Source: Gemmatimonadota bacterium (GTDB lineage: Bacteria; 4572-55; J002). Taken from it: DNA of 26,019 bases. The notes beneath the pieces were generated by a model. The model worked only from the letters and a program-made list of their open reading frames with translations, was not told the origin of the DNA and did not search any database. Of this stretch, positions 198 to 20,383 are shown piece after piece. Position numbers and translations under genes: made by a program. Location: contig RFFQ01000151.1 of assembly GCA_003697105.1 (NCBI GenBank), positions 1-26,019 on the forward strand, given 5' to 3'. How positions within the stretch are numbered: position 1 is the stretch's first letter; each line of letters starts with the position of its first letter.

Positions 198-259
198 GGA
201 ACGATGACACATACGATAAAGTGTATCTTAATTTATTGATATTATTGATGTTAATCATC

Positions 260-3200
260 ATGAAGTGTAACTATAAAATAAATTTAATCGAACGGAACGT
301 AATTCTACTCATTGTTTTATTGTTGGGTTGGGTTGCTAAAGGGGTGGCATTTGAGGCGACATTGACTCGCCTCGAAGGAGAGGCGATGGGTGCACCACCG
401 CGTGCCTTGGCATGGGGAGATATGGATGCCGATGGTCGTCTAGAACTAGCCGTAGGGGCGGAAAACGGGATTCACATCTACCGGTACGATGAATCTCCGG
501 CATTCCCCGATGGACAATTTCGGCGTATTCAATTTGTGGAACTTTCACACCCGGTACAGGATGTCGCGTGGGGTGATCTGAACGGGGATGCCTATCCAGA
601 ATTGGTTGTGGCGCTCTCTGGACGAAATCGCGCTTTTCGGAATCAGGGGGGCAGCCAATTTGTCCCCTTTTGGGTGGCGGATAATATTGTCGATTCTCGC
701 GCCATCCGGCTTGTTGATGCAGATTCGACCCTAGATGGTCGATTGGATTTGGTGGTTGCTAATGTTAATGCGCCGGATGAATTATATCTTAATACCGGCA
801 ATGGGTTTGAACCGTTTTGGGAATCCCCGACGGCGGAGTCATCATTTTGTGTGGAAGCGGTCGATTTGAATGAAGCTCAGTATCCGGTCTTCTTTTTTGG
901 TGGGCGCGATGAAGTCCGGTTTTACACCTTTCCGTATCAAGCGTCTTCGACCAACCGAATGGCGCTCCCCGATGACAGTACCGATGCGGTTTCGCTCTCA
1001 TTTGCCCAAGTTGATGGTACCGACGGGTTGGATATGTATATCGGCACCCGCTGGATTCCCCGCCGGGTTGGGCAGGGGCAGGTCACCGAGCGGCAAGATT
1101 ACTTTTACAGGCATACCTTTAATGGTTCAGAACATCTGTTTGTTCGGGAAGAGTCATTTTTACCGGCGGCAGATGCTACATGGCAAGTTATGTGGGGTGA
1201 TTTGGACACTGATTTTCAACCGGATATTCTGGTTGCCGGATTGGAAGGCTTCAAAATATATCGCTATCACGCCGGTGTGTTGGCGGATCAACCGGCGGTT
1301 CAGGAACTTTTAGAAAATCCCGCCCGAGCCGCCGCTTGGGGAGATGCCGATAATGACGCCGATCTCGATCTGGTTATTCTTACGAGAGATACCGATTATC
1401 CCCTACTCTACCGGAATGATCAACTGTTACTAAGCCCCCTCCAACCCGTCGAGCTTGAGTTTGAGATTCTGCAACTCCACAGTTGGGATATTTCGGCTCA
1501 TTCCGGCTCAGAATTAGTCGGTGTTTCCGATGCGGGAGAGGCGTTTTATTATTATTGGGAAGACCACCAACTTGTCGCCTCCCCGCATTCTCCCGAATAT
1601 TATACCCCCTTCGTGGATATGGATGCCGGTTTTGTCAATACAGATTCGCAATTGGATGTGATTATTGCCACTCAAGAATCGCTTTATGTTTGGGATTTAC
1701 ATCAGGCAGACACCTTTACGGTTCGTCAGGAGTTAGAAGCCCCACGACCCAGCCAACTGATCAGTGCCGATCTGGATAATGATCAGGATTGGGATTTGAT
1801 TGTCCAGCGAGAGATCGGCACGCGAAGCACACTCCGGTTGATGTATAATGAAACCGGGCAATTTCAAGCGGGATCGTTGTGGGAAACGCAGTCGTCCCCG
1901 GGGAATCATATTCTGAAGTTGTTTTGGCAAGACCTTAATTTTGATATTGCCCCAGATGTCGTTGTTTTAGATGAAACGTCGTTCCGGGTGTACCGGAATA
2001 TCTCCGCATTTTTGGAAAGTACGCCCAATATCGTCATACCGTATGCGTTTGGCGGTAATTTACAAGATGCGATTCTGGCGGATATGGGAGAAAATGGAAC
2101 ACTGGACGTGGTCGTGGCGGGCGGGTCCACGCTTGGCGGCTTTCCAAACCGGTTGGCACCGCCGCCCACAATTGAAGCGTGGCAGGAAGCACCGGATGTT
2201 CAATTCGAGCCTATCCTGAACGCGATAGAACTCCCCGATACGACGCACTTGATTGAAAAAATCGACATTGATAATGATGGGGATTGGGATATCGTCACGG
2301 CAAGTGGGGGTACACTCTATTTATATAAAAATCAAGGTGATTGGCGGTTTTCCTCACCGTTAAGCCTTTTTGTCACCCGTTCCGCAATTCAGCATCTGGT
2401 GGTGGGGGATGTGGATAATGATGGTGACTCGGATATCATCACCGCCAGCCGTATAGCTAACGGTAGTGAACTACACGTTTATCTCAATTATTATCAGGAT
2501 GTATTTAAAAACCAACTCCATTTTATTGACCGTCCGGTCACGATCACGTCTCTGACACGAAGTGACTCTACCGACGGAGAGTACCGCTTTGACCTTGAAT
2601 TAAGTGACCCCCATAACAATCTTCTGCGTGTGGTGGGGGAATTCTCACTGTTTGGTGGACATTGGCAAGATTTTGATAGTACCGGCGTAGCACCTCTGGA
2701 ACATGAAACTCTCATCTTTCCGTGGGCAGAACAGCCACCTTATGCGGTTTATGGGAACGACGTCGCGGTCCGGTTTGTTCTCCGTGCCACACATTTACGT
2801 TTTGGTCAGGCGTTGTATGGGCAACCTACTACTTTATGGAAATTGCCCTTTATCCACCAACCGTATCACACCGCACCTGTGATTGACATGGTTTATCCAA
2901 CGGCAACCGATACCCTGAGTGGGAGTTTTCCGGTGTTGGCGTCCGTCTTCATTCCCCGGGATTCAATTGCCTATTCGATTACGCTGATCCGGCAAGACGG
3001 CGTTCGGATACCCTTGGAGCGGCATCAAATTCCCACCCGTTATGTCCAGCAACTGGCACTTGTGGATTCGCTTCAGGCATCGCAACTGGATTCTCTCCTT
3101 ATTACGCTGTATGAGGGGGTACAACCCCTTGATTCTCTGGCAATAGACCTCACCTTTACATCTATAGTATCAGATTACCAGCATCCCACGATCCGGCATA

Positions 3201-5710
3201 TTTTTCCAGCTAATGGTGCGGAGGATGTTCCGCGAAATAGTCCTATTTATGTGGTGATCAGTGACTCGGCGGAGATTCCGCTCAATGATCAATCCGTCAC
3301 CGCGGGGCTGACGGTGTACAACCATTACAATGCGGTGGTCCCGGGTACGGTGGAATTTCTATACATGGTGGATATTCCCAATTTAATTGTGTTTTACCCG
3401 GAAATAGACCTCCTACCGGAAAGCTATTACTACGTGGTCGTTGATCCTGAGTTACAGGATTTGGAAGGACACCGCTTGCTGAACCCTCGCGTGTGGAGTT
3501 TCAAGACCTTGGCGGAACCTCCCACCCAAGATATTGTGTTGTTTGATCCGGTGCCGGGTGCTCTCGATGTCGATCCCGATGACCCCCAGCAATTGGTTAT
3601 TCAATTTGACGAAGGGCTGCCGGAGGACCCTCAAATTCCCGTTCGGGTTTACAATTCTGCCGGTGTGCGGGTCGCTGCGGATGGAATCACCCGCTACAAT
3701 CCGATTACCCGGGTGCTGACATTTGATTGGAGTGGCAGTGTCATTTTACCCCGTTCCAACACCGGAACACCTGCCCCAGCACCCTCCATCCGAACCGATG
3801 CGTTTTATACCGTTCATATTGATGAGGCGTATTTTGTGGATTCTGAGGCACCGTACATTTACTCATTTGCGACCACCCGATCTCACCCGCAAATTAACCC
3901 GGATCGACAAATGCCCGCCCCCGGCGATTCGCTCGTGCCGCCCTCAACCTATATTGAAGTGGAATTTGACCGGTTTATGAATTCGCTGACGATTCAGGAA
4001 GAAAGTTTTTATCTGGTGGAGCTGTTTGCGGATGGTCGCGAGTCTGCCCCCATACCGGCACTGGTCAGTAACAATGCGCCACGCAAAACGGCGCGCTTGA
4101 CCCCGAACCATTCACTCCGTACTTCCACGTGGTATCGTGTTTATTTGACGACGCAAGTGAAGGACATCAGCGGTGTTCCGTTAGCTGAAGCAGTGCATTG
4201 GACGTTTCGCACTCGGCAGGTCTCCTATGATAACCGTCCGGTTGAGGTTTGCCCACCCCCGCTAGTCCCGGATACCGTCGTTGTTGCTTTGCCATCATGC
4301 CCGTATGATAACGGGGAGAATGTGCCGATCACGCTCGACAACATTACCCTAAAATTCAGTGAGGCATTAAATGGTGCAACGGTCAATACTGAATCATTCC
4401 ACGTGGCGGCGATCTACCCGCCGGATAGCTTGTACCACCTCCCCGGGATTGTCTATTACAATGGTCAGGATTCTACTGCCAATTTTTTGATCACCGGAAT
4501 GGAGTTGGAGACAAACCGGGAATACCAAGTTCAGTTTTCCCCCGATACGACGGTACTTACGGTGGGTGGGGCACGCCGGATGCCGGTTGAATGGCAGTTC
4601 CGGACGGTAAATTGTGAAACCGGGCTGATCGTCATTTCCGACCCGGATACCACCGATTATATCGACCCCCAGAATTTTGATGTCCGGTTAATCCTCAACC
4701 AACCGGTTATTTTTCCGAATCCCAATTTGCAACGCTTTGTGGTCTCGTTTCAACAGCTTTCGCCAACCGTGCGTGATCTTAGCGGAACGGTTAGCTTGGA
4801 TAGCACCGGGCATGAAATTACGTTTGTACCCAATACCGCCCCCGAAGATAGCGCGAGGTATCGTCTCCAGCTCAATACAGACCCCAACTACATCCGTTTG
4901 AAATCCGGCAATGTGGAAATCTGTTCCGGGGAGTTTGTCTGGAATTTCCAAACGCCGCCAGCAATCGATCCCAATCAGGGGGGTATTGCGGCGGATTACC
5001 GGAATCACATCCAACTGATGGTACCCTTTCACGGTCTTAACAATAAAACCGGTATCACCATTCAAGTGCTTTGTGGCTATAATGAGATTCCATGTGACGC
5101 CCTCCCGCCAGAGGAGTCAAATCCGAGTCACTTGGCTTGGGGAGACCCCTACCTTCGCTTTTCAATTTATCCCCTTGACCTCACGTTAGAGAAAACAGCA
5201 ACATTGAGCGTTGATTTGTCGTCGCTGAGTGTTCCGGAACCCACAACTTTGGGTTTTGTGTACCGGACGCCGGCGGATACCAGTTGGGTGTATCTGGGAG
5301 GCACTGTTGATGAAGTGAAGCAGTTGTTGGCTCTGCCGGTGCGTCAGTTTGGTGAATTTATGGTCGTGGAGCGACCCGAAGTTGAGGGTGAGGAATCCGC
5401 GCCCTCAATCCGCGATTTAGCCATTCAGCCCCGTGTGTTTTATCCTGCCGATGCCGGTGTCTATGACCAAACAACGCGCATCTCATTCACGTTAGGGCAC
5501 GCTTCACCGGTGACTCTTAAAATTTACAATGGCGCGGGGGTTTTGGAGCGCCGTTTGCTGGATGGCGAACGGCTTGCCGCGGGACACCACTCTTATCCGT
5601 GGGATGGACAAAACAATCAAGGTCAAATTGTTCCGGCAGGGCTATACATCGTGACCGTGGTCACGGATGATGCCAAAGCCATAAAAACGGTGGGCGTTTG
5701 GCGGCGATAG
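260..5710 (+). CDS. Giant secreted FG-GAP/VCBS and Big_5 repeat protein with FlgD-like C-terminal domain
   Basis: Likely an exported surface or extracellular protein, by family about 1816 residues long. In numbering from the upstream GTG at 221, a charged stretch and hydrophobic core (residues 15-45, ending near GWVAKGVA) form a signal peptide. The first half (about 60-800) has recurrent FG-GAP/VCBS calcium-type loops such as WGDMDADGRLELAVG, WGDADNDADLDLVI, DIDNDGDWDIVTA and GDVDNDGDSDIITA, suggesting a beta-propeller. About 1000-1620 holds repeated SbsA/Big_5 Ig-like modules (PANGAEDVPRNSPIYV, YRVYLTTQVKDISG, WTFRT endings). The last 75 residues are a FlgD-type Ig domain (PWDGQNNQGQIVPAGLYIV) like T9SS-linked tails in FCB bacteria. 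I prefer the ATG at 260 because it gives a conventional signal peptide. The GTG at 221 adds a second hydrophobic stretch, and neither start has a Shine-Dalgarno sequence. Ligand and substrate are unknown. Confidence 0.85.
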   Translation: MKCNYKINLIERNVILLIVLLLGWVAKGVAFEATLTRLEGEAMGAPPRALAWGDMDADGRLELAVGAENGIHIYRYDESPAFPDGQFRRIQFVELSHPVQDVAWGDLNGDAYPELVVALSGRNRAFRNQGGSQFVPFWVADNIVDSRAIRLVDADSTLDGRLDLVVANVNAPDELYLNTGNGFEPFWESPTAESSFCVEAVDLNEAQYPVFFFGGRDEVRFYTFPYQASSTNRMALPDDSTDAVSLSFAQVDGTDGLDMYIGTRWIPRRVGQGQVTERQDYFYRHTFNGSEHLFVREESFLPAADATWQVMWGDLDTDFQPDILVAGLEGFKIYRYHAGVLADQPAVQELLENPARAAAWGDADNDADLDLVILTRDTDYPLLYRNDQLLLSPLQPVELEFEILQLHSWDISAHSGSELVGVSDAGEAFYYYWEDHQLVASPHSPEYYTPFVDMDAGFVNTDSQLDVIIATQESLYVWDLHQADTFTVRQELEAPRPSQLISADLDNDQDWDLIVQREIGTRSTLRLMYNETGQFQAGSLWETQSSPGNHILKLFWQDLNFDIAPDVVVLDETSFRVYRNISAFLESTPNIVIPYAFGGNLQDAILADMGENGTLDVVVAGGSTLGGFPNRLAPPPTIEAWQEAPDVQFEPILNAIELPDTTHLIEKIDIDNDGDWDIVTASGGTLYLYKNQGDWRFSSPLSLFVTRSAIQHLVVGDVDNDGDSDIITASRIANGSELHVYLNYYQDVFKNQLHFIDRPVTITSLTRSDSTDGEYRFDLELSDPHNNLLRVVGEFSLFGGHWQDFDSTGVAPLEHETLIFPWAEQPPYAVYGNDVAVRFVLRATHLRFGQALYGQPTTLWKLPFIHQPYHTAPVIDMVYPTATDTLSGSFPVLASVFIPRDSIAYSITLIRQDGVRIPLERHQIPTRYVQQLALVDSLQASQLDSLLITLYEGVQPLDSLAIDLTFTSIVSDYQHPTIRHIFPANGAEDVPRNSPIYVVISDSAEIPLNDQSVTAGLTVYNHYNAVVPGTVEFLYMVDIPNLIVFYPEIDLLPESYYYVVVDPELQDLEGHRLLNPRVWSFKTLAEPPTQDIVLFDPVPGALDVDPDDPQQLVIQFDEGLPEDPQIPVRVYNSAGVRVAADGITRYNPITRVLTFDWSGSVILPRSNTGTPAPAPSIRTDAFYTVHIDEAYFVDSEAPYIYSFATTRSHPQINPDRQMPAPGDSLVPPSTYIEVEFDRFMNSLTIQEESFYLVELFADGRESAPIPALVSNNAPRKTARLTPNHSLRTSTWYRVYLTTQVKDISGVPLAEAVHWTFRTRQVSYDNRPVEVCPPPLVPDTVVVALPSCPYDNGENVPITLDNITLKFSEALNGATVNTESFHVAAIYPPDSLYHLPGIVYYNGQDSTANFLITGMELETNREYQVQFSPDTTVLTVGGARRMPVEWQFRTVNCETGLIVISDPDTTDYIDPQNFDVRLILNQPVIFPNPNLQRFVVSFQQLSPTVRDLSGTVSLDSTGHEITFVPNTAPEDSARYRLQLNTDPNYIRLKSGNVEICSGEFVWNFQTPPAIDPNQGGIAADYRNHIQLMVPFHGLNNKTGITIQVLCGYNEIPCDALPPEESNPSHLAWGDPYLRFSIYPLDLTLEKTATLSVDLSSLSVPEPTTLGFVYRTPADTSWVYLGGTVDEVKQLLALPVRQFGEFMVVERPEVEGEESAPSIRDLAIQPRVFYPADAGVYDQTTRISFTLGHASPVTLKIYNGAGVLERRLLDGERLAAGHHSYPWDGQNNQGQIVPAGLYIVTVVTDDAKAIKTVGVWRR

Positions 5711-8352: not shown

Positions 8353-9405
8353 CTAATAGACCACCTCAAAGGCAGTCTGGGGTTCTGTTTTACCCTTTAA
8401 TAGAAGCGGTTCTAATTCACGAATATCCAATTGGTTACAAACGGATTCTGCCGTCTTTTTGCAAATGAGAATCTGATGTTGGGTGGCGGTCTCTTGCAAT
8501 CGTTTCGCTGTATTGACGGTATCACCGATGGCGGTGAAGTCCATCATATCCTGACTGCCCAGATTACCCACCACCGCCGAACCGGTTTGAATCCCTGCGC
8601 GCAAGCCTAGTTCCGCTAGGGAGGGGTGTTGTCGCTGGATTTCGCGAAAAATCAGTTGCATATCAATAGCGGTTTGAACTGCCCGCAGGGGGTCATCCTC
8701 ATGCGCGATGGGTGCGCCGTAAAATGCCATTAACCCCTCATCGATATACTTATCGAAAATACCATCATATTGCCGGATGATCGGTGCAAGATGACCCAAA
8801 ATTAGGTTAAGGTGATCCGTTGTTGTACGGGCGTCATGTTTTTCTGTTATCCGGTGAAATCCCCAAATATTGACAAAGAGTACGCTGATTTGGGCGGTAT
8901 CACCCCCCAGTTGCAATGCCGCTTCTGGGTTGGAAAAAATACCTTGGGTAATTTCATCTGCCACGTAACGACGGACAATATTTTGCAAGATCGCATTTCG
9001 CCGTTCTAATTCATCAAGTAACTGTTTGGCTCGAAGTTGGGTGCGCACCCGGATGAGAAGTTCCGTCCGGTCCACGGGCTTCCGCAAAAAATCATCCGCG
9101 CCGGATTCCAATCCTTTAACTTTGTCTTGTAATTCCTGCAATGCCGTCAGCATGATCACCGGGGTCGCTTGGAGGTCAGGACGCTGTCGCAAATGCCTGA
9201 GCGTTTCAAATCCGTCCATTTCGGGCATCATGGCATCTAAGACAATCACATCCGGTAATTGGGTTTCACAAAACAGGAGGCATTCCGCACCGTTGGTCTG
9301 TTGGGCAACATCATAGCCTTCTTTCACCAAAACGCGCGATAAAATCATGCGTGTTCCCGGATCATCATCAACAATTAAAATTAAGGATTTGGATTTGGTT
9401 TTCAT
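8353..9405 (-). CDS. Response regulator fused to a degenerate class III nucleotidyl cyclase domain
   Basis: About 350 residues. The N-terminal receiver domain (about 8-120) has the acidic pair in VDDD, phospho-acceptor D57 (VIVLDAMMPEMDG), a conserved T and K109 (FLRKP). A short helical linker leads to a class III adenylate/guanylate cyclase domain (about 170-345). The substrate-contact residues are present: K219, D289 (MDFTAIGD), N298 and R302. Both metal-binding positions differ from consensus: the usual FxDIxGF reads LFVNIWGF (N179), and the usual IGDG reads IDEG (E223). The domain may therefore be inactive, weakened, or a nucleotide-binding output. Start: the ATG at 9405 has AAGG just upstream; the ATG at 9420 adds five residues and has no binding site. 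It follows the hybrid kinase gene closely and is its likely partner. Confidence 0.85.
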   Translation of the reverse strand: MKTKSKSLILIVDDDPGTRMILSRVLVKEGYDVAQQTNGAECLLFCETQLPDVIVLDAMMPEMDGFETLRHLRQRPDLQATPVIMLTALQELQDKVKGLESGADDFLRKPVDRTELLIRVRTQLRAKQLLDELERRNAILQNIVRRYVADEITQGIFSNPEAALQLGGDTAQISVLFVNIWGFHRITEKHDARTTTDHLNLILGHLAPIIRQYDGIFDKYIDEGLMAFYGAPIAHEDDPLRAVQTAIDMQLIFREIQRQHPSLAELGLRAGIQTGSAVVGNLGSQDMMDFTAIGDTVNTAKRLQETATQHQILICKKTAESVCNQLDIRELEPLLLKGKTEPQTAFEVVY

Positions 9406-9444
9406 TATGCCTTGCAACATCAGGGTTTTGTAAAATGATCGGTA

Positions 9445-12400
9445 TTAACTTGGGTTTATTTCTGCCAGTAATGCGGCTTTAACACGGTTCAATTCATTCT
9501 GAATCAAGTAGAGATGTTCCCGCGCCCGGTCCAGATGGTTCGCTTTGGCTTGGATTTCCAGATGCGTGCATAATTCCGCTAAATGCAATGCGCCTAGGTT
9601 GGCACTACTGCCTTTAAGCCCGTGTGCCGCGCGTCGCACTTCATCTGTATTGTTTTGGTTTAGGGCGGTTTCGATCCGGTCGAGCAACACAGGCGCATCT
9701 TCCAGAAAAATCTGAATAACGTCGTTTAGGAATTCCGGGTCATCAGCACCCCCCAGTTGGCGGATACTTTCAAAGGCATCGGGATCGAGTGGCGGCACGG
9801 AGTTATCTTCCACCGCCATAGGCGGGGTTTCTTCCGAACGACGAGCGGATTGTTGCACCGCCTGTTCTAAGGCATTCATTAACTGGTCAAATTTAACCGG
9901 TTTGGTGATATAGTTATCCATTCCGGCATTGAGGCATTTTTCGCGGTCACCTTTCATGGCATCGGCGGTCATCGCAATGATGTGGGGGCGCTGGCTCGGG
10001 GGATACGTGCGACAGATAGTACGGGTCGCTTCCAACCCATCCATTTCGGGCATTTGGACATCCATCAACACCACATCATATTGTTGGCGGGCGACCGCTT
10101 CCACCGCTTCTAAGCCATTTGCGACCACATCGATGCGGTAACCCATTCGCTCCAACAGGCGAATTGCCAATTTTTGATTGACCAGATTATCTTCGGCTAA
10201 TAAAATTTTGAGTGGCAATCGCTCCGCCATTTTGGAATCAATTTGGGGGCGTTTTTGTTCCCGTACCGGTACCGGCAGCGGCGTTCCTTCAAGGGCTAAC
10301 AACAGGGCATTATACAGTTGCGACTGTTTGACCGGTTTGGTCAGGAGTGCATGGAACAACTGCCGGTCAGATTGCAGGTCTGTTTCTGTCCGCCCAATGG
10401 AGGTCAACATGACCAACGGAATATCTGGTGAATGGCGTTCACGGATAGCCTTTGCTACCATTAGCCCATCCATGCGGGGCATTTGCATATCCAAAATTAT
10501 CACATCTACATGATGCCCTTCGGAAAGAAGGCGTAGCGCCTCTTCCCCAGACGCCACGGCGGTCGCCTTCATCCTCCAACGAGTGGTCTGCATGCTCAAG
10601 ATTTTGCGATTCGTGGCATTATCATCGACAATCAAAACCGATTTATTCTGCAAGCGGGGTAAATGTTCATCGATAGGGCGGTGTTCGACGAGGGCGTGTG
10701 TTCGGATGGTGAAGTAAAAGGTTGATCCGCTACCGACTTCACTTTCAACCCAGATATTCCCGTTCATCATGTGGGTCAGGTGTTTACAAATGGCTAACCC
10801 CAAACCGGTACCCCCGTACTGGCGAGTTGTGGAAGCATCCACCTGACTAAACGATTTGAACAACCGGTCCATTCGATCCGCAGGGATACCGATGCCGGTA
10901 TCCTTCACCGCAAAGCGGAGGGTATGTTGATGCCGTACCGGTGAATATTCCGCCGCTACGGAAACAGTTACTTCGCCTTCTTCCGTGAATTTGATGGCAT
11001 TGCTAATCAGATTCACCAGAATTTGCCGCAACCGGGTCACATCGCCCACAATGACCTCTGGGACATCCGGTGACATGATATAGAGCAGTTCCAACTGTTT
11101 TTCCGCCGCTTTTGGTGCTAACAACTCAAGGGCATCCTCAATGCAATCCCGCAGATGAAATGGTTGTTCTTCCAATTCCATCTTACCAGATTCAATTTTG
11201 GAAAAATCGAGAATATCGTTGATGATCGTTAGTAAGGCTTCGCCACTACTCCGGATTGTTTCCACATATTCGGCTTGTTCGGCGGTGAGGTCGGTATCCA
11301 GCAACAAGCCTGTCATCCCAATAACGCCATTCATGGGGGTTCGGATTTCATGGCTCATATTGGCGAGAAATTCCGCTTTCATGCGGGCAGCCGTTTCGGC
11401 GGCATCTCGTGCGGCTTGCATCTGTTCCTTGACCTGTTCATCCGCCAGCGTTAGTCCCATCAATTCACTAACTTGCCGGAGTGTTTCTATCACAAAGGGA
11501 TCCCGCGAGGGATACGGAGCGGTGTACAGGAAGATAACACCCAACAGTTCCTCCCCATGTTTGATGGGCAAGATATAATGACCGTGGGGTGTCATCTCTT
11601 CAAATTGGTGTTCGTGCTGGGAATCCTCAAAGCAGTCATCTGAAATCATTATTTCCCCGGAGACGGCGACTCGCCCGCAGAGACAATCACCGAAGTTAAT
11701 GGTTTGCTCACGCCGTAAAAATTCTTCCGAGAAGGTCCCATGTGTGAGATACAACTGAAGTTGGTCGCCGTTTTGGCTTCGCAAAAAAATTCCGCCTTTA
11801 TTCATCAATTCCAGAGATTCTATGCTGAATAACTGTGCCAACGCTTCATCCAACCGGTCCCGTAAGGGACGTTGGTCCCGTAAAATACGGGCAATCGTTG
11901 CCCGGCGTTCCGCGATCTCTCGCCGGAAGGCTTCTTGTTTTTCCTGCCATACTTGTTCGGTAATATCTTGTTGAATTGAAATATAGCCGGTAATATCACC
12001 ATTATCGCCTCGAATTGGGGCGATTGTGGTTTGTGCCCAGTACAAATAGGGGTCATCCAATGGGTTTTGGTGGATCAGAGCTAAATGACGGGGTCCCTTA
12101 CGCCGGTTCAGGAAGCGCCCTTTCCAAACTTCGCCGTTGAGGAGGGTAGTCCACAACTCGTGATAAACCGAATCATCGGTAAAGCCGCTTTTAAACAGGC
12201 TGGGAGTTTCGCCGATTAATTCGGCGGCGGAATAGCGCGTAATGCGTTCCATAGCGGGATTGACATACTCAATCACGCCATCGAGATTCGTAATTAGCAC
12301 ACCATCTGCGGTGGCTTCTACCGCCATGGCTAAACGTTGGCGTTCCAACTCTGCCATTTTTCGCAGAGTGACATCCCGGTACTGCCACAGATGCCCCTGA

Positions 12401-13620
12401 TAGTTCCCCTCTACAAAAATGGGGATATAGTCGCGCTCAAAAATGCGCCCATCATTCAGCAGCCACTCTTCATTGGTGACGAGCTCTTGTTGGGCTAAAA
12501 TTTCAGCGGTTCGTGCCTGAAAGCCGGCTTCATCCTCAAACAGAAATTGGACGGACGGGATAAATTGGAGACTATTTGTTCCCATCAGGGATTGTGGCGA
12601 ACCGGTATATTGGAACATTTCGCAAAACCGGTTGTTGACCAGCACAATCGTGCGGTGTTCATCTTCCACCATCACACCAGCTTGCAGATTTTCCACCAAT
12701 GCCACGAGGCGCGAATACGTAGATTGTGCTAACTCTTCCGCCTGTTTCCGCTCGGTGATATTCCGCAGGGTTCCGGCGACGCCAATGACATTCCCGCGGG
12801 AGTCCCGAACTTGGTGGGCATTTGCAGATACGTACACCAAATGACCATCGCGATGCTTCATGCGAACTTCCACATCACTGACTTCACCTTTCCGGCGCAG
12901 TTGGCGAAACAATTTGAGATTATCCGACCGGTGGAAATACAACTTACTTACTGGAGTGCCAATCAATTCCTCGCGGGAATAGCCCGAATGCCGAATGATA
13001 GAAGGGCTAATCTCAACAATAGTGCCTTTCACATCGGTTTGATAATACACATCTTGCACATTTTCAAAGAGGTTGCGATACCGTTCTTCGCTTTGGTGCA
13101 ATTCTTCTTGTGCTTTCTGGCGCAACGTAATATCACGGAGTACCACCACAAAAAGCATTTCCCGCTCTAGGTTCATGGTGGTGGTGGTCACTTCTAGGGG
13201 GAAGACCGTTCCGGTTTTGTGCAATCCGTAGAGTTCGGATTCCCCCGGGCAAATCTGGTAATCTTTATTGGCAATTAAGGTCTGTAGGTGTAAGTCGTTG
13301 AGTTCTTCAGGAGTGTAGCCAAAGAGGCGCTCTACCGCCGCATTCCAAGAACGGATACATCCTTGCGGCGTTACTGTAACAATACCATCGGTGACGGTAT
13401 TCATCACGGATTCTAGGTAGGTTTTACTTTCCCGGCGGATTTGATTGAGGCTCGAAAGCTCCTGTGAGGCAATCTCTAAAGACCGATCTTTTAAGTGACG
13501 TTCTCGATCAAACTCCTCATAGGTCGCATTGATCAGGTTCAAGAGTTTTTCCAAATCCGGCGTGCCATCGGGGGAGCCGCGCCGGGCTTTTTTGAGTTGG
13601 CGTTCCAAAAGTTTGTGCAT
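9445..13620 (-). CDS. Soluble multi-PAS/GAF hybrid histidine kinase with two receivers and Hpt domain
   Basis: A 1391-residue phosphorelay kinase with no membrane segment or signal peptide, so it should sense in the cytoplasm. Domain order: short coiled-coil lead (1-65), four PAS domains (about 66-170, 178-292, 300-420 and 428-556), GAF (about 575-730), HisKA with H757 ([15 protein letters not shown]), HATPase with N874, DTGIG (907-911) and GTGLGL (937-942), receiver 1 with D1044, receiver 2 with D1187, and Hpt with H1333 ([13 protein letters not shown]). All relay residues look intact, giving a His-Asp-Asp-His chain of BarA/EvgS style. It starts 7 nt after the FIST stop codon, and GAGG lies about 12 nt before the ATG inside the end of that gene, so translation is probably coupled. 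Likely sensor input is FIST and likely output the downstream RR-cyclase; both are inferred from gene order. Confidence 0.92.
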
Positions 13621-13627
13621 GTAGGGT

Positions 13628-14767
13628 TTACGCCTCGTGTTCGCTCAAAAGAGTGATCGTCATGGTTTGATTATGCAAATTACAGGTGCCCATCGTGCGA
13701 TGAGGCGATATTTCGCCGTAGGAATAAAATCCAATTTGATGGGCGCCGTCTCCCAGAATTTCCTGAACAGCTTCCACTTCATCGGCGGTGCGTTGCCCCA
13801 GCACTAATTTTCGTCCGACACAACTGATCAGAATTGCCAACTTAGTGGTACTGGATTCCGTCAGGTGGGCTAATTTAGCGGCTTCTGCCGCACCCTCCAC
13901 TAGCCGGTCAAAGTTCGCCATCATCAGTTGGGCAGTATAGCCTTCCGGCACATCCCCGGCAAATACCATACTTTGATCCGCTTCATGGATCGTCAGAATC
14001 GTTCTTACTACCGCCTGATCCGGATTATCCGCCGGATAAATTGCTAACGGGAAAAGTAGTGCACTACCCGGCAGGTTTTTAGCCTCTTCACCCAAATATT
14101 TTTTATAGAGTTCCAATGCCGGTTTTCCATCTAACTCATATAGGATGTTGCCCTTGGAACGGGTGATGCGGCGAGTTGGGCCAAACGCATCCCACCCCCC
14201 AAAAGAACCGTGTCCAATCTGAATCTGATCGCCATAAAACCCAACAGCCGCAATCAAACCGCTGGTGGGTTCACAATTGCAACTGACATGCGTCACCTCA
14301 AACCGGTCGGCATCACCGGCTAAACCGCCGGTAATGGGGATATTGGCATCGATAACCTGATTGAACCCCTGAACTAGCTCACTCCCATTGACATGCTGCC
14401 CATCGGAAATAACCAACATGCCCCGCAACCCCTCCCGGTTGAGGCGTTCCCCTAATGATTTTCCGACAGTGAAGGATTCCGTGCTATCCGTGACCCTCAC
14501 CGAGGCAACATCAATTTGGGTGTAGGCAAACTCAATGGCGGCAACCACGATGGTGTCATCCAAAACCTCATCGTCCAAAATTTCACCCGAGGTACTGCAA
14601 CCAATAATGTTAGCTTGCGGATAACGGTCTTTCAAATCTTGATAATATTGGGGAGATTTCAGCACATCTGTACCCCCGAAGAAGAGTACCAGTTGTGGAT
14701 TTGTGACGCCGCTGCCGGGATTAATGCATTCCCAAGTCGTATCCCATAACCATTTTTCAACTTTCAT
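13628..14767 (-). CDS. FIST-domain sensory protein (FIST_N plus FIST_C)
   Basis: A 379-residue soluble protein with the FIST N domain (about 25-220; [37 protein letters not shown]) and FIST C domain (about 221-370; [67 protein letters not shown]). FIST proteins are predicted ligand-sensing modules, with amino acids proposed as ligands, and usually lie next to histidine kinases or cyclases, as here. A perfect AGGAGG is 9 nt before the ATG, and the gene begins 12 nt after the upstream lipoprotein stop. Position first in the FIST, kinase, RR-cyclase order suggests it feeds the kinase. The ligand cannot be read from the sequence. Confidence 0.9.
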
Positions 14768-14779
14768 CCGTTAAACCTC

Positions 14780-16966
14780 CTAATTTAAATTCAGATATGT
14801 CCGCATCTGTGAAATGCGGACCGTGGGTTGTTGGCACGTAAAATTTTGGCACACATAAACCGTGGTCTGGTCATCGAGGCGGTCTTGGTATGCGGTAAAT
14901 GGTGCCAACTCCGCCAATTGAGCTTGATTTGCGGATGTTTTGAGATGAATGACCATATGAGGCAGAAAGGCGTCCCGCAAGGTGCGGATCATGGCTTGGG
15001 TGTGCGGATCATCGGGTTCGCCCACAATCACCACTTCATAGCCGGGATGGAAGGCAAAATCAAGCCCGTTTAGCCATTGGGCATAGGCAGATGGGGCACG
15101 GCGGATCGTCTCTGCGAAGGCGTGCGCTAACTGCTCAGCCTGATCTTCCCAAGCCGTATTACCGGTCAAGCGGCTAAGCCGGAGTAAATTGAGCACCATC
15201 ACCCCATTACCAGAGGGCACGGCACCATCATACGCTTCTTTGGAGCGGGTAATGAGTTTTTCAGTATCATCTGCCGTAAAGAAAAAGCCACCACGTTGAT
15301 CATCCCAAAACTGCTCAAAAAGAACCTGATTGAAATCGAGTGCCGCTTGTAAATAGCGGAGATCAAACGTGGTTTGGTGCAATTCAATCAAACCCCAGAT
15401 CATAAACGCATAATCGTCCAGATGCGCCGTTAATCCGGCGTCACCTGCCCGGTAACGATGGTACAGCCGCCCGTTACCGGTTTGTAACGCCTTTAGGATA
15501 AAAGCGGTTGCCCGTTCGGCGGCAATCGTGTAGCGGGGTTCCGCAAAGACGCGACCGGCAGTTGCCAAGGCGGCGATCATTAGCCCATTCCAGTCGGTTA
15601 AAATTTTATCATCTTTGAAAGGGTGAATCCGGTTTTCGCGCACCGCAAATAATTTTTGCCGGATGGGTTCCCAGATTGCCGGATAATCGGCTTGTTGTTC
15701 ATGAAGCGGACGATTCAGATGGAGAATATTCGCACCGGTGGCATGTCCAGAAGCTTCCTCCCGAAAGTTACCTGCCGCTTCCACTTGAAATGTCCGGATC
15801 ACAAAGTCCGCTTCTGCGGGGGTGAGTATTTGGCGCAATTCGGTTTCCGTCCAGACATAAAACTTCCCTTCTTCCCCGTCACTGTCGGCATCTTCCGCCG
15901 AATAAAATCCACCTTGCGGATCGGTCATCTCCCGTTGAACGTACGTAAAAATCTCATCCACCACCTGCTGATAATATGGATCGCGGGTCACTTGGTAGGC
16001 TTCTGTGTATGCCAGCATCAGCATTGCCTGATCGTATAGCATTTTTTCAAAATGGGGCAAAAACCATCGTTCGTCAGTGGAATACCGGTGAAAACCGAAT
16101 CCGACATGATCAAATATGCCACCGAGCCGCATCTGCCGTAATGTGGTTTCCACCATTTCCATGGCATGTTGCGGGGTTTCTTGGTGGCGGCTGTAACGTA
16201 ATAGGAAGGTCAGGACGTGCGGTGAAGGAAATTTAGGGCGGTCACCAAACCCGCCATATTGGGGGTCAAACCGCTGTTCCAACTGTTGAAATGCGGTATC
16301 CAGTACCTGTGGGGTCAAGGAGTCACTGCTGGTAGCGTTCAGTTGTGCCTGTTGCAAGGCTTGCATAATGTTTTCAACGGTTTGATCGATTTTGTCCCGT
16401 TCATGTTCCCATACCTGCCGTAAGCGGGGAATGAGGTCCAGCAGACCAATTCGTTGGTAGCGGCTTTCTTTGGGGAAGTATGTGCCGGCAAAAAACGGTT
16501 TTTTATCGGGAGTCATCACAATGGTGAGGGGCCACCCCCCGTGTCCGGTCATCATTTGACAGACCGTCATATAAATGCCGTCAATATCCGGGCGCTCCTC
16601 TCGATCCACTTTGATGCAGACAAAGGTATCATTCAGCAGTTTAGCGACGGTCTCATCTTCAAACGATTCGTGTTCCATCACGTGACACCAATGGCACGTG
16701 GAATATCCAATCGAGAGAAAAATCGGTTTATCTTCTGCTTTTGCTTTGGCAAATGCCTCTTCGCCCCAGGGATACCAATCAACCGGATTATGAGCATGTT
16801 GTAATAAGTAAGGGCTTTTTTCATGAATTAATCGATTTTGATGCGGGTGGGTGGGCATGGTGGATGTTTCCTCGCTGGTTGAGCGGTTGCACTGGCTAAA
16901 CAGTAGCAGCACACTTAGACACATGATCGTTTTGATCGGGGCTGTGGGAATGGAGTTCATTTGCAT
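14780..16966 (-). CDS. DUF255 (YyaL/SSP411-like) thioredoxin-fold protein, putative lipoprotein
   Basis: A 728-residue member of the DUF255/YyaL family (spermatogenesis-associated protein 20 in animals). After an N-terminal hydrophobic segment ending LLFSQC (C26), the thioredoxin-like domain (about 38-200) begins [20 protein letters not shown] and carries the CxxC motif CHWC (C91, C94). The family signatures [20 protein letters not shown] and YFP follow. The remainder (about 230-600) is an alpha/alpha-barrel-like region resembling six-hairpin glycosidases or epimerases ([30 protein letters not shown]). C26 suggests a lipoprotein, but FSQC is not a classical lipobox. Biochemical function is not established. 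Its ATG overlaps the preceding stop as TAATG, indicating translational coupling. Confidence 0.85.
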
Positions 16967-17592
16967 TAAAGAGTCACGCTTGTTTTGATTAATTTTGGGA
17001 TCAAAATCGTGATCGCTTTTTGAAGTTCATCGAAACTATTGACAAAAACAATGTGCGGGCACTCTGCCAGCATCAGGGGGAGTTCATGGCGGATTTGGCG
17101 TCCGGCTTTAAGGTAGGCCAGCAGATGTTGGTACGCCATTTCGCCAATCTGTTGCTGGAGCGCTTTGTTTTTCACCAGTTGATCCAAATCCCCTAAACCG
17201 GGAGGGGCAAAGGTCTGTCCTCCATTAAACCAAACAATCGAATGGCGTCCGACTCTGGCGTCGTCCATAATCTCCATGACCGAGACGGCGGCAATCGTAT
17301 CTGCCGTGATTTCATAGACCCGAAGTTGAGCAAGTTTTCGCGCCCGTTTTTCTTCTGGACCATCGATGCCCCACACATACTCACGACCATGTGTGGAGGG
17401 GTGTATTTGGGGGTCATAATAAGACCAGCCTTGGGCATCCAGCCACGCCGTAAGTGGATCGCGTCCCGGATTCCGAATGGGACCGGTTAAGCTTTGGATA
17501 TTACACGCTCCCCCCGTAAACAGGAGCGGTATTTTTCCCTTCTGCATCATCTCGGAAGTAACCAACATGGACTTCGGCCGGTTTCTATCCAT
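16966..17592 (-). CDS. Conserved 208-aa protein, possibly nucleoside deoxyribosyltransferase-like
   Basis: I do not recognise this protein with confidence. It begins with a beta strand and glycine-rich turn ([12 protein letters not shown]), then [20 protein letters not shown], a strand-turn element [14 protein letters not shown], and a C-terminal [14 protein letters not shown]. This Rossmann-like pattern, with a YDPQ element after the first strand, loosely recalls nucleoside 2-deoxyribosyltransferase-like proteins; that is a weak guess. There are no membrane segments. AAAGGAG lies 8 nt before the ATG, giving a firm start. It sits 25 bp after bcp and overlaps the DUF255 start by one base, so it belongs to the same transcript. 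Confidence 0.7.
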
Positions 17593-17617
17593 CCGTCTTT
17601 CTCCTTTAATATAAGCA

Positions 17618-18097
17618 TCACGCCGCGGTCAATTCGTTTAGTTTCTGCCATACCGCATCCACATGACCTTTCACTTTAACCTTTGTCCAAGCTTCTCGCA
17701 AGATACCTGCCGGGTCGATTAGAAACGTACTGCGCACCACTCCCATATAGGTTCTGCCGTACATTTTCTTCTCTTGCCAGACACCGTATTCTGCCAGCAC
17801 GGTTTTCTCTGGATCGCTGAGCAACGTCACTTTTAGATCATGTTTTTCGATAAACTTACCGTGACTTTGGATCGAATCTGGGCTGACTCCAATCACCACC
17901 GCGCCTTTGGCTTCAAAATCGGCAAGGCGATGGGTGAAATCTAAGGCTTCGGTTGTACAACCGCTGGTATTATCTTTGGGATAAAAATAGAGGACGACCC
18001 ATTTCCCTTTTAGACTGGCAAGCGATACCATTTCACCATTTTGGTTCGGTAGGGAAAATGCCGGGGCAGGATGTCCGAGAGCCAATGAATTCGACAT
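17618..18097 (-). CDS. bcp: Thiol peroxidase of the Bcp/PrxQ family, 1-Cys variant
   Basis: A 159-residue peroxiredoxin reducing hydrogen peroxide and organic hydroperoxides in the cytoplasm. The fold is complete: VVLYFYPKDNTSGCTTEA with peroxidatic C47 and T44, and the catalytic arginine in GVVRSTFLIDP. The second cysteine found five residues on in most Bcp proteins is replaced by L52, so this is a 1-Cys form that must use an external thiol. The start at 18097 is chosen because GAAGGAG lies about 9 nt upstream and the fold begins at once; an in-frame ATG at 18157 would add 20 residues unlike the family. It heads the leftward train, with a promoter at 18169-18197. Confidence 0.9.
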   Translation of the reverse strand: MSNSLALGHPAPAFSLPNQNGEMVSLASLKGKWVVLYFYPKDNTSGCTTEALDFTHRLADFEAKGAVVIGVSPDSIQSHGKFIEKHDLKVTLLSDPEKTVLAEYGVWQEKKMYGRTYMGVVRSTFLIDPAGILREAWTKVKVKGHVDAVWQKLNELTAA

Positions 18098-18168
18098 AAC
18101 ATCAATCTCCTTCGTTAGTTGAAAGCCGGTGAAGCAGGTTGACAACACCGTAGCCATGCTTTGGGATG

Positions 18169-18548: not shown

Positions 18549-19496
18549 TTATCCTTCAGAAACCGGTGCGACTTTGTTCATTAACTCATTCAATTTGGCT
18601 TTTAGCTCCTCGGGGTCCACCTCTGAGCCAATTTCCTGTTGCAATTTTAGCAAGTCTTGTTGGACTTTCAACTGGGTTTGCGCTAACTGACCCGCCAGCT
18701 TGGATTGGATTTCTTGGGTTTTCATCTCCACCATTTGTTGGGCACTCCCTTGAAATAGGGATTTTAAGGCTTCCACAAACCGGTTCAGAAAAGTATAGAG
18801 CAAATCCGCAGAAAAACCGCCTAAAATGGCAAGTAAAGGACGCACAATTCCTTCCGCCAACAGATCATTTTGAATGGATTGTTCTTTGATCAAAATTGCC
18901 AAGAGCAACCCGCTAATCAACCCCAGAAAGAAACGAATCCAGTAGGAAGCCTGATGAGTGGGATCAAACGTTCCGCTGGTAATGTAGGAATTCGCCTTGT
19001 AAAGTGCGGAAAAGGAAGCACCCAGACCGGCAGCACCCAGAAAGAAAAAGAGATTCACAAGCAAATCGATACCACTCGACTCAAAAATATTCCCTCCATC
19101 TAAATTGACATAGGGCGTCAGCGATAAGCCAATAAACAGCCCCAACGAAATAATGGCAGCCAGCATCAGTTGCCGCACCAATCCGACGGGACCCAAAAAC
19201 TTGATCAAGCTGGGGGTTTCTTGCTCAATATCCAGCAGCAGAATGGTTTGTGGCGTGGCCGGTTGAACCAATTTTGCTAACTGCTCATGAACCGCCACCA
19301 ATTCACCAATTTCGACGTCCCGTTTGGCTTTGCCTTCTTCCTCACCCTCGTACCGTTCGATGGTCTTAATGGTACCCGGTGGAATGGTTTTCCCTTTGGC
19401 AAGAGCATATTCCGCCATTGCCCGGCACTCCCGATAAACTTGATCCCGTAATTTGAGATGGGCATACGGGTTGATATTACGTTGTTTGCTCATCAT
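18549..19496 (-). CDS. Four-helix membrane protein with C-terminal coiled coil (paralog 1)
   Basis: A 315-residue protein of unknown function. A charged soluble N-terminus (1-100; helical MAEYALAKGKTIPPGTI region) precedes four hydrophobic segments near 107-125 (LMLAAIISLGLFIGLSL), 145-165 (LLVNLFFFLGAAGLGASFSA), 188-203 (FFLGLISGLLLAILI) and 218-240 (RPLLAILGGFSADLLYTFL). The last 70 residues (QQMVEMKTQEIQSKLAGQL onward) form a predicted coiled coil. Spacing of the hydrophobic segments and the PLLAxLGGxS motif match the neighbouring protein at 19571-20305, so the pair looks paralogous. GGAGGAG is about 7 nt before the ATG. The upstream gap holds a perfect 7-bp hairpin at 19541-19558. Confidence 0.75.
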   Translation of the reverse strand: MMSKQRNINPYAHLKLRDQVYRECRAMAEYALAKGKTIPPGTIKTIERYEGEEEGKAKRDVEIGELVAVHEQLAKLVQPATPQTILLLDIEQETPSLIKFLGPVGLVRQLMLAAIISLGLFIGLSLTPYVNLDGGNIFESSGIDLLVNLFFFLGAAGLGASFSALYKANSYITSGTFDPTHQASYWIRFFLGLISGLLLAILIKEQSIQNDLLAEGIVRPLLAILGGFSADLLYTFLNRFVEALKSLFQGSAQQMVEMKTQEIQSKLAGQLAQTQLKVQQDLLKLQQEIGSEVDPEELKAKLNELMNKVAPVSEG

Positions 19497-19540
19497 GAAT
19501 GTTCTCCTCCGGTAAAATAAGATTGAAAATACGCAAATGG

Positions 19541-19558
19541 GGATATGTTAGCATATCC
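19541..19558. promoter_or_regulatory. Perfect 7-bp hairpin between the membrane paralogs
   Basis: GGATATG (19541-19547), loop TTAG, and CATATCC (19552-19558) form a perfect stem in the 74-bp gap between the two paralogous membrane genes. On the minus strand only interrupted T-runs follow (CCATTTGCGTATTTTC), so a weak terminator, a processing stem, or an operator palindrome are all possible. Confidence 0.35.
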
Positions 19559-19570
19559 GAAGGGCTAATT

Positions 19571-20305
19571 TCAAGCGGATTTTCTGTGTATCGATTGAAT
19601 AACGTGATGGATCCAGCGGAGAGACTCCCGCATCCACGCATAAATTTCCTGCACCCGCCGGATCATCAGGCGATACATCCGCACCCCTCCACGATACGCT
19701 TCAACGACAATTGAGCCTGAATAGCCACCCAACACTGCCAGCAGAGGGTTCGCAATGGAGGGTTCAATAATGGGAAGCATCGCATCCCCCGGGAGCGCAA
19801 ACCCCAAGGCAATCCCAAATCCAACCCGAATCCCAAAAAGCCACCCCTGCGGGCGGTCTTCTTCCGGCTGATAGACCAAATTGAACACTTTTTGGCTCAG
19901 GGTCAGTACCGTGATGATCGTTGCCCCTAAGATTGCCCCGGAAGTATAGGCGGCAACACGCCACCATAGGTCATTTACCTGCGCGGCGGTGACGATCACC
20001 CCCACGAACACCAGCACGGATAACAAATGGAAGATCACCCACCGGCGCAATTCTGGGATTGCTCCCAAGAACGATGCCCAGCTATGCGAGCCCGATTGCA
20101 TGAGGTGTACTAATTCTGGACGGCGGGGTGAGAGCGAGAGACTCAACTTCCAGTGGGCATCTGCTAAAGCGGTGGGGTTGATCTCAGCCAAAGGCGTTTC
20201 AGCGAGGCGTATCATCTCCAGTTCGACAGCGCAACCGCGCCCTATCTGGTAACTAATCATGGATTTGAGTTCCGCCTGTTTTTGCGATAATGAGGACGCT
20301 TTCAT
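19571..20305 (-). CDS. Four-helix membrane protein (paralog 2)
   Basis: A 244-residue protein of unknown function. A soluble N-terminal part (about 1-85) precedes hydrophobic segments: VIFHLLSVLVFVGVIVTAA, VAAYTSGAILGATIITVLTL, GIRVGFGIALGFAL and ANPLLAVLGGYSGSIVVEAY. A basic C-terminal helix (MYRLMIRRVQEIYAWMRESL) replaces the longer coiled coil of its neighbour. The same helix order and the PLLAVLGGYS motif point to common descent with 18549-19496. I chose the ATG at 20305; a TTG at 20371 would add 22 residues and lacks support. The binding site is weak (AGG about 8 nt upstream). The gene follows purF by 78 bp and may be read from the same transcript. Confidence 0.7.
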   Translation of the reverse strand: MKASSLSQKQAELKSMISYQIGRGCAVELEMIRLAETPLAEINPTALADAHWKLSLSLSPRRPELVHLMQSGSHSWASFLGAIPELRRWVIFHLLSVLVFVGVIVTAAQVNDLWWRVAAYTSGAILGATIITVLTLSQKVFNLVYQPEEDRPQGWLFGIRVGFGIALGFALPGDAMLPIIEPSIANPLLAVLGGYSGSIVVEAYRGGVRMYRLMIRRVQEIYAWMRESLRWIHHVIQSIHRKSA

Positions 20306-20383
20306 GGAAATACCTATGAGTTTATCGTGATTACCTGTGGCATATTTGGTTACCGTACCGTATATCCTCAAGCCGGGTTGTGG

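What the first reader, a model, noticed from the sequence alone, without database searches (positions are those of the whole stretch)
8353..14767. Soluble FIST - hybrid kinase - RR/cyclase relay as one unit
FIST protein, 1391-aa kinase and response regulator-cyclase lie head to tail with gaps of 7 and 24-39 nt, and none has a membrane segment. The sequence shows intact relay residues (H757, D1044, D1187, H1333 and D57 of the regulator). FIST is a proposed small-molecule sensor, so the set reads as a cytoplasmic ligand-sensing phosphorelay ending in a nucleotide-related output. The assignment of FIST as input is inference from order.
Basis: partly seen in the sequence, partly recalled or inferred. 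Interest (0 to 1): 0.6.

Follow-up and report, generated by a model that had tools for sequence, protein, structure and literature searches.

The report
FIST sensor with shared docking segment
Three neighbouring genes encode a soluble FIST sensor, a large relay kinase and a response regulator, and comparison with relatives shows that FIST proteins of this branch are almost always followed by a protein beginning with the same uncatalogued 66-residue helical segment, whether that protein is a kinase, a c-di-GMP enzyme or a phosphatase, which points to a common plug by which one sensor drives many outputs.

Summary
The three ORFs, their gaps, relay residues and lack of membrane segments are as described. 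FIST-kinase pairing is real: in 76 of 78 testable GTDB loci encoding a FIST 47-59% identical to the window's, the next gene begins with a conserved ~66-aa helical segment (window kinase residues 2-67) matching no Pfam or NCBIfam family. It occurs on histidine kinases, GGDEF-EAL enzymes, SpoIIE-type phosphatases and two short free-standing proteins. FIST divergence tracks this segment (r=0.83) far better than the kinase core of the same polypeptide (r=0.31). In two genome samples (386 and 347), 24 of 26 clear matches (E<1e-9) lie beside a FIST gene. Best reading: FIST docks on this segment and tunes the relay kinase, as NosP does NosK, though this FIST is below NCBIfam's NosP cut-off. The third gene is less secure: none of 36 second-downstream genes scanned in relatives is a cyclase, and the window's cyclase domain alone among 20 has both metal-binding aspartates replaced (N184, E225), so a nucleotide product is doubtful. 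The ligand is not identifiable from sequence. AlphaFold showed the segment as helix-turn-long helix but gave no docking evidence. Verdict: a new variant of FIST-linked two-component signalling, with an apparently undescribed adaptor segment.

The parts
13628..14767 (-). FIST protein, 379 aa, soluble (FIST N + FIST C); family-wide conserved C316 and H365, and in this branch also C362
   Evidence: ORF; PF08495 3.4e-52, PF10442 5.8e-39; fold of a relative matches human FBXO22
9445..13620 (-). tripartite hybrid histidine kinase, 1391 aa: segment - PAS x4 - GAF - HisKA - HATPase - REC - REC - Hpt
13420..13617 (-). kinase residues 2-67: conserved FIST-partner N-terminal segment (H.LL.RQ...Y...D.DR...ERS...S.E), proposed FIST docking segment
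   Evidence: 5.4e-23 to the segment model; the window is one of its training rows; and 88/89 adjacency; co-divergence; no Pfam/NCBIfam family
10702..11382 (-). kinase HisKA + HATPase core, phospho-accepting H757
10297..10641 (-). first receiver (D1044), limits approximate
   Evidence: Pfam finds two receiver stretches; residues read
9868..10206 (-). second receiver (D1187)
   Evidence: residues 1139-1251
9472..9720 (-). Hpt domain (H1333)
   Evidence: same coordinates
8353..9420 (-). response regulator with class III cyclase-like output, 355 aa (or 350 aa from ATG 9405)
9046..9381 (-). receiver domain of the regulator (D62 of the 355-aa reading)
   Evidence: residues 14-125
8374..8895 (-). degenerate class III cyclase domain: metal Asp1 -> N184 (8869-8871), metal Asp2 -> E225 (8746-8748); transition-state Asn and Arg kept
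14780..16966 (-). DUF255/thioredoxin-like gene ending 12 nt before FIST; possibly co-transcribed, not part of the conserved set

Best explanation
The locus is a cytoplasmic sensor-kinase relay. The free-standing FIST protein binds an unidentified small ligand or cofactor (heme/NO is the only precedent) and docks on the conserved N-terminal helical segment of the kinase (residues 2-67: a short helix, a turn, then a long helix running on toward the PAS/kinase part). Ligand-dependent docking changes the coil and so the autophosphorylation or phosphatase state of H757; phosphate then passes H757 -> receiver -> Hpt H1333 -> D62 of the adjacent regulator. The regulator's output is a cyclase-fold domain that has probably lost normal catalysis and acts, if at all, by binding a nucleotide or a partner. 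Shown here: gene order, intact relay residues, the shared segment on kinases, GGDEF-EAL enzymes, phosphatases and stand-alone proteins beside FIST, co-divergence of FIST with the segment, and the altered metal residues. Inferred: physical docking, ligand, direction of control, phosphotransfer to this regulator, loss of catalysis.
For: Gene order and residues. A genome scan keyed only on FIST peptides gave 80 GTDB loci; two contigs end under 190 nt after FIST; in 76 of the other 78 the next gene (gap -55 to +95 nt) carries the segment, and no other ORF in those loci does. Partner types: 66 histidine kinases, 5 GGDEF-EAL, 5 SpoIIE, 2 short proteins, 1 cut by a contig end, counting the window and two Azospirillum plasmids; at least 9 changes of partner type on the FIST tree. 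Independent samples: 386 genomes, all 9 matches with E<1e-15 directly downstream of FIST; 347 genomes of one phylum, 16 of 18. FIST-segment distance correlation 0.83 (subsamples 0.77-0.87; best of 1000 permutations 0.12) against 0.31 for FIST-kinase core of the same chains. Azospirillum oryzae and A. lipoferum plasmids: FIST - PAS kinase - HD-GYP regulator, gaps 4 and -4 nt. Precedent: NosP binds NosK and controls its autophosphorylation (PMC12570481). Cyclase sites.
Against: AlphaFold gave no docking evidence: the segment alone (pLDDT about 86-98) is no worse than when joined to FIST by reading through the stop (pTM 0.81, segment about 81-96), and no coordinates were available. Two matches at E<1e-9 (G609; second copy in G627) and weaker ones (G338 4e-9, G208 3e-8, G315, G390) have no FIST beside them. 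A conserved gene pair inherited together would also give correlated distances, although the kinase core of the same chain does not follow. FIST proteins at 26-29% identity sit beside kinases without the segment, so FIST can evidently work without it.
Confidence: 0.62

Rival explanations
1. Classical NosP-NosK-NosR system: the FIST protein is a heme-based nitric oxide sensor and the locus is simply a NosP operon in a new lineage.
For: Same gene set and logic (PMC12570481; PMC11237717); the only relevant NCBIfam match of the FIST protein is to the NosP model, E 3e-18.
Against: Score 66 bits against the curated cut-off of 450, best stretch residues 24-165 only. Heme or NO binding cannot be read from the sequence; the output is not a c-di-GMP domain. 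Whether characterised NosK/NahK kinases carry the segment could not be tested, since none of those genomes was at hand.
Confidence: 0.2
2. The conserved segment is a kinase/coiled-coil dimerisation leader that merely travels with FIST as an inherited gene pair, and FIST talks to another part (PAS or GAF).
For: It continues into a long helix; some divergent copies occur without FIST.
Against: It is shared by kinases, GGDEF-EAL enzymes, SpoIIE phosphatases and two short proteins that have nothing else, and kinase cores of the same chains do not follow FIST divergence.
Confidence: 0.2
3. The regulator is an active class III adenylyl or guanylyl cyclase, so the relay ends in cAMP or cGMP.
For: Overall match with solved cyclases, E 2.4e-26; transition-state Asn and Arg kept; Glu could still hold a metal; a distant FIST lies 7 nt from a canonical-looking cyclase in Aliiroseovarius plasmids.
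Against: Both metal aspartates replaced (N184, E225); the 19 other cyclase domains with both sites aligned, from this and other genomes, keep both.
Confidence: 0.15
4. Chance adjacency: the three genes are independent neighbours in a two-component-rich genome.
For: 124 HATPase_c matches in 4.18 Mb.
Against: FIST-partner adjacency in 76 of 78 loci and 24 of 26 clear matches in independent samples. For the regulator alone, chance is not excluded.
Confidence: 0.03

Closest known systems
NosP-NosK-NosR (NosP-NahK-NarR) nitric-oxide systems
   Same: Free-standing FIST protein encoded with a soluble histidine kinase and a response regulator; FIST acts as auxiliary input (PMC12570481, PMC11237717, PMC8846402). 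B. pseudomallei NosR also has a degenerate output domain (HG-GTP in place of HD-GYP, PMC12570481).
   Different: This FIST scores 66 bits against a cut-off of 450 for NosP; output is a cyclase-like domain, not c-di-GMP turnover; kinase is a PAS x4-GAF tripartite hybrid carrying the 66-aa segment.
Azospirillum FIST - PAS kinase - REC-HD-GYP loci (A. oryzae KACC 14407, A. lipoferum 4B plasmids)
   Same: Same order, tight spacing, segment-bearing hybrid kinase, FIST 42-45% identical
   Different: Regulator ends in HD-GYP instead of a cyclase-like domain.
Tripartite hybrid kinases of the BarA/TorS/ArcB kind
   Same: HisKA-HATPase-REC-Hpt relay; best NCBIfam score is to BarA
   Different: No membrane part, two receivers, PAS/GAF input, FIST-partner segment; below the BarA cut-off (517 against 890 bits).
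Class III adenylyl/guanylyl cyclases (solved chains 2w01, 1wc0)
   Same: Whole-domain sequence match and most motifs
   Different: Both metal aspartates replaced (N184, E225).
Human FBXO22 (FIST-fold F-box protein)
   Same: Best fold match of a relative's FIST, Foldseek E 9e-12
   Different: Ubiquitin-ligase substrate receptor, no two-component partner.

Membership tests
FIST family | FIST N and FIST C domains over the curated cut-off | tested here: met
   177.5 against 23.2 and 133.7 against 28.5 bits
NosP (NCBIfam NF041558) | score over the curated cut-off of 450 bits | tested here: not met
   66 bits, best stretch residues 24-165
NosP | binds heme and nitric oxide | not testable with these tools
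   needs purified protein
NosP-NosK-NosR operon type | FIST gene next to a soluble kinase and a response regulator | tested here: met
NosP-NosK-NosR operon type | regulator with a c-di-GMP-metabolising output domain | tested here: not met
   receiver + Guanylate_cyc
Segment-bearing FIST partner (grouping proposed here) | N-terminal 66-aa segment, gene directly downstream of FIST | tested here: met
   5.4e-23 to the model (the window is in the training set, but the consensus was first seen in an alignment without it), 7 nt downstream
Tripartite hybrid histidine kinase | intact H, D and Hpt H residues in HisKA, receiver and Hpt domains | tested here: met
   H757, D1044, D1187, H1333
Class III nucleotidyl cyclase, catalytically competent | two metal-binding Asp | tested here: not met
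   N184 and E225 in their place
Class III nucleotidyl cyclase, catalytically competent | transition-state Asn and Arg | tested here: met
   both present
Cognate phosphorelay | phosphotransfer from this kinase's Hpt to this regulator | not testable with these tools
   needs in vitro phosphotransfer

The most novel reading that the evidence does not exclude
The 66-residue N-terminal segment is a general, undescribed FIST-docking adaptor: one lineage of free-standing FIST sensors uses it to plug into histidine kinases, c-di-GMP enzymes and SpoIIE phosphatases alike, with outputs swapped repeatedly in evolution while the sensor-adaptor pair stays together. Here it feeds a relay that ends in a pseudo-cyclase.
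Probability: 0.55. Interest if true: 0.72.

Novelty: new variant of a known kind. Interest (0 to 1): 0.58.

Why it matters
FIST proteins are known to control kinases and c-di-GMP enzymes, but a 2022 review states that little is known about how they bind substrate and pass the signal on (PMC8846402). A short, conserved partner segment that follows FIST rather than the attached enzyme gives a concrete docking site to delete, swap or fuse. It predicts which proteins without a recognised sensory domain are FIST-controlled, and could let a FIST sensor be transplanted onto different outputs. The altered cyclase is a reminder that the output of such relays should not be read from the domain name.

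Tried and rejected
Fusing FIST to the segment by reading through the stop in a relative with in-frame genes (L054) and folding it: good local confidence but no coordinates for an interface, and the segment alone folded as confidently, so it says nothing about docking. Column covariation between FIST and segment over 77 pairs: top values exceed permuted pairings and many involve FIST residues 313-363, but the null ignores the tree and 77 pairs are few, so it is a hint only. Promoter and terminator scans: 12 and 12 sites, no more than in shuffles, so the transcript start is not located. Sequence search of the PDB with FIST: none. tblastn of the segment against plasmids: none, although a profile finds it in the Azospirillum plasmids. 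Phylum of G328: only 9 genomes, too small for statistics. Considered and rejected: membrane anchoring of any member; strict conservation of the three-gene set; classing the FIST as a NosP equivalog. A simple ORF picker failed in GC-rich loci and was replaced by one anchored on the FIST match.
Full report
OBSERVATION. The window holds on its minus strand FIST (13628-14767, 379 aa), a 1391-aa kinase (9445-13620) and a 355-aa regulator (8353-9420), with gaps of 7 and 24 nt (39 if the regulator starts at the second ATG, 9405). Pfam gives FIST N + FIST C; PAS x4, GAF, HisKA, HATPase_c, two receivers and Hpt; and receiver + Guanylate_cyc. H757, D1044, D1187, H1333 and the regulator Asp (D62, or D57 from the second ATG) are in place, and no 19-residue window is hydrophobic enough for a membrane helix. 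The run of co-directional genes extends upstream: a DUF255 gene ends 12 nt before FIST, preceded by a 208-aa ORF and an AhpC/TSA gene. Promoter-like sites are no more frequent than in shuffles, so the transcript's start is unknown.

IS FIST COUPLED TO THE KINASE? The genome has one FIST gene. A scan of GTDB contigs keyed only on two FIST peptides returned the 80 best loci, 47-59% identical, from Bacteroidota, Nitrospirota, Pseudomonadota, Cyanobacteria, Gemmatimonadota, Acidobacteria, Planctomycetota and others by record title. Anchored on the FIST match, the next gene was read off. Two contigs end within 190 nt (L025, L040); L024 and L026 have no close downstream gene; in the other 76 the next gene lies at -55 to +95 nt.

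THE SHARED SEGMENT. Aligning these next genes, without the window, gave almost no conservation except at the N-terminus: H.LL.RQLKR ... P ... L..V...Y...D.DR...ERSL.LSS.EL...N..L. The window's kinase begins [61 protein letters not shown] 66-position profile matches all 76 next-gene proteins, both Azospirillum ones and the window; the only scanned one without it is Nostoc (FIST 28% identical). No other ORF in those loci carries it (two 'other' rows there are the window itself and an over-long ORF). Pfam at loose thresholds and NCBIfam list no family for it. The most conserved positions in window numbering are L4, L5, R7, Q8, Y34 and E54.

WHAT IT IS ATTACHED TO. Of 79 partners counted with the window and two Azospirillum plasmids, 57 have a kinase core found directly and 9 more by Pfam (L031, L032, L035, L043, L058, L063, L067, L070, L077). 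Five are GGDEF-EAL (L030, L049, L065, L076, L081), five SpoIIE phosphatases (L033, L041, L066, L094 by Pfam; L086 by near identity to L066), two short proteins with nothing else (L069, 114 aa; L085, 158 aa), and L088 is cut by its contig. On a quick FIST tree the four partner types need at least 9 changes. The segment-bearing label needs 3 changes, or 2 after correcting the label of L017, which does have the segment beside it, and 1 if the orphan Legionella plasmid FIST is left out. The tree is a quick one with long outgroup branches, so these counts are approximate.

INDEPENDENT TESTS OF ADJACENCY. The segment alignment was searched in 386 genomes, mostly one per family: 12 matches, of which all 9 with E<1e-15 lie just downstream of a FIST gene on the same strand; G338 (4e-9), G208 (3e-8) and G315 (2e-4) lie in genomes without FIST. 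FIST itself occurs in 90 of the 386. In 347 genomes of one large phylum there are 18 matches in 17 genomes, 16 beside FIST; the exceptions are G609 and a second copy in G627. Taken together, without counting G084 twice, 24 of 26 matches with E<1e-9 are beside FIST. A further weak match (G390, 1.7e-4) is not.

CO-DIVERGENCE. For 55 loci with a kinase core, pairwise distances of FIST and segment correlate at r=0.83 (two-thirds subsamples 0.77-0.87; best of 1000 permutations 0.12). FIST against the kinase core of the same polypeptide gives 0.31, and 66-column pieces of the core 0.22-0.37. The segment therefore follows FIST, not the enzyme behind it. A column covariation test hints at the C-terminal part of FIST (residues 313-363) but does not control for the tree.

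STRUCTURE. AlphaFold2 predicts the segment as a short helix, a turn and a long helix (relative L054 alone, pLDDT 93). A read-through fusion of FIST and segment from the same relative gave pTM 0.81 and similar local confidence. No coordinates were available and the fusion did not raise the segment's confidence, so structure neither supports nor contradicts docking. The FIST part matches human FBXO22 best.

THE OUTPUT. None of 36 tightly placed second-downstream genes in relatives contains a cyclase domain; they are mostly receivers, kinases and HD-GYP. The closest named relatives with the whole set, Azospirillum plasmids, have FIST - PAS kinase - REC-HD-GYP. The window's cyclase domain aligns with solved cyclases, but the first metal Asp is N184 (LFVNIWGF against LFADIRGF) and the second is E225 (KYIDEG against KFIGDG), while the transition-state Asn and Arg remain. 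The 19 other cyclase domains with both sites aligned, eight of them from this genome, keep both Asp. That these Asp bind the catalytic metals is established knowledge of the family, not tested here. The second site differs by several bases, so a single sequencing error is unlikely. I infer that catalysis is lost or altered. There is a parallel in B. pseudomallei NosR, whose HD-GYP motif is degenerate (PMC12570481).

COMPARISON WITH KNOWN SYSTEMS. NosP proteins are FIST-domain heme/NO sensors that bind and control an adjacent kinase, which phosphorylates a regulator (PMC12570481; PMC11237717; PMC8846402). The window's set works like this on paper. As to membership, its FIST scores 66 bits against NCBIfam's NosP cut-off of 450 and its regulator has no c-di-GMP domain, so I do not file it as a NosP system. 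FIST proteins at 26-29% identity (L021, L125, L128) lie beside kinases without the segment, so there are at least two ways in which FIST is paired with kinases. Whether experimentally studied NosK/NahK kinases carry the segment could not be checked. The literature library (open-access papers only) held no description of such a segment in the papers my searches returned, which does not prove that it is undescribed.

VERDICT. The finding is real, and its input half is strongly supported and generalises. Most of the interest lies in the shared partner segment.

Noticed in passing
window 14780-18157: AhpC/TSA gene, a 208-aa ORF without Pfam family, and a DUF255 thioredoxin-like gene run head to tail into FIST (gaps 25, -1 and 12 nt) and may share its transcript; the gene before FIST varies among relatives.
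   Followed up: partly
window 18549-20371: Two neighbouring ORFs (315 and 266 aa) with hydrophobic stretches and no confident Pfam match.
   Followed up: no
window 221-5710: 1829-aa protein with FG-GAP repeats, Big_5 Ig-like domains and a C-terminal FlgD_ig domain, probably secreted or on the cell surface.
   Followed up: no
L151 4944-6939 (Aliiroseovarius crassostreae plasmid): A distant FIST (27%) is followed at 7 nt by a class III cyclase whose metal sites look canonical (FADFVGF, KTIGDAY): a direct FIST-cyclase pair without kinase or segment.
   Followed up: partly
G208:C105:53353-53541, G338:C178:229-420 (L122, L123): Divergent copies of the segment in two genomes of one family that have no FIST gene; the G208 copy heads a histidine kinase.
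   Followed up: partly
G609:C3:320233-320427 and G627:C342:19897-20091: Clear segment matches without a FIST beside them; G609 has no FIST at all although congeners have the pair.
   Followed up: partly
L069 11142-11486 and L085 11158-11634: Short proteins (114 and 158 aa) consisting of little but the segment, beside FIST; possible adaptors acting in trans.
   Followed up: partly
L018 4476-5642 (Legionella anisa plasmid; also L. longbeachae, L. sainthelensi): A FIST of this branch (48% identical) without any kinase beside it.
   Followed up: no
L138 5512-6524 (G006): FIST gene next to the segment appears split over two reading frames.
   Followed up: no
G000:C52:11882-12505: A second cyclase-domain protein in the same genome (379-aa frame), 43% identical in the cyclase domain, with canonical metal aspartates.
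   Followed up: partly
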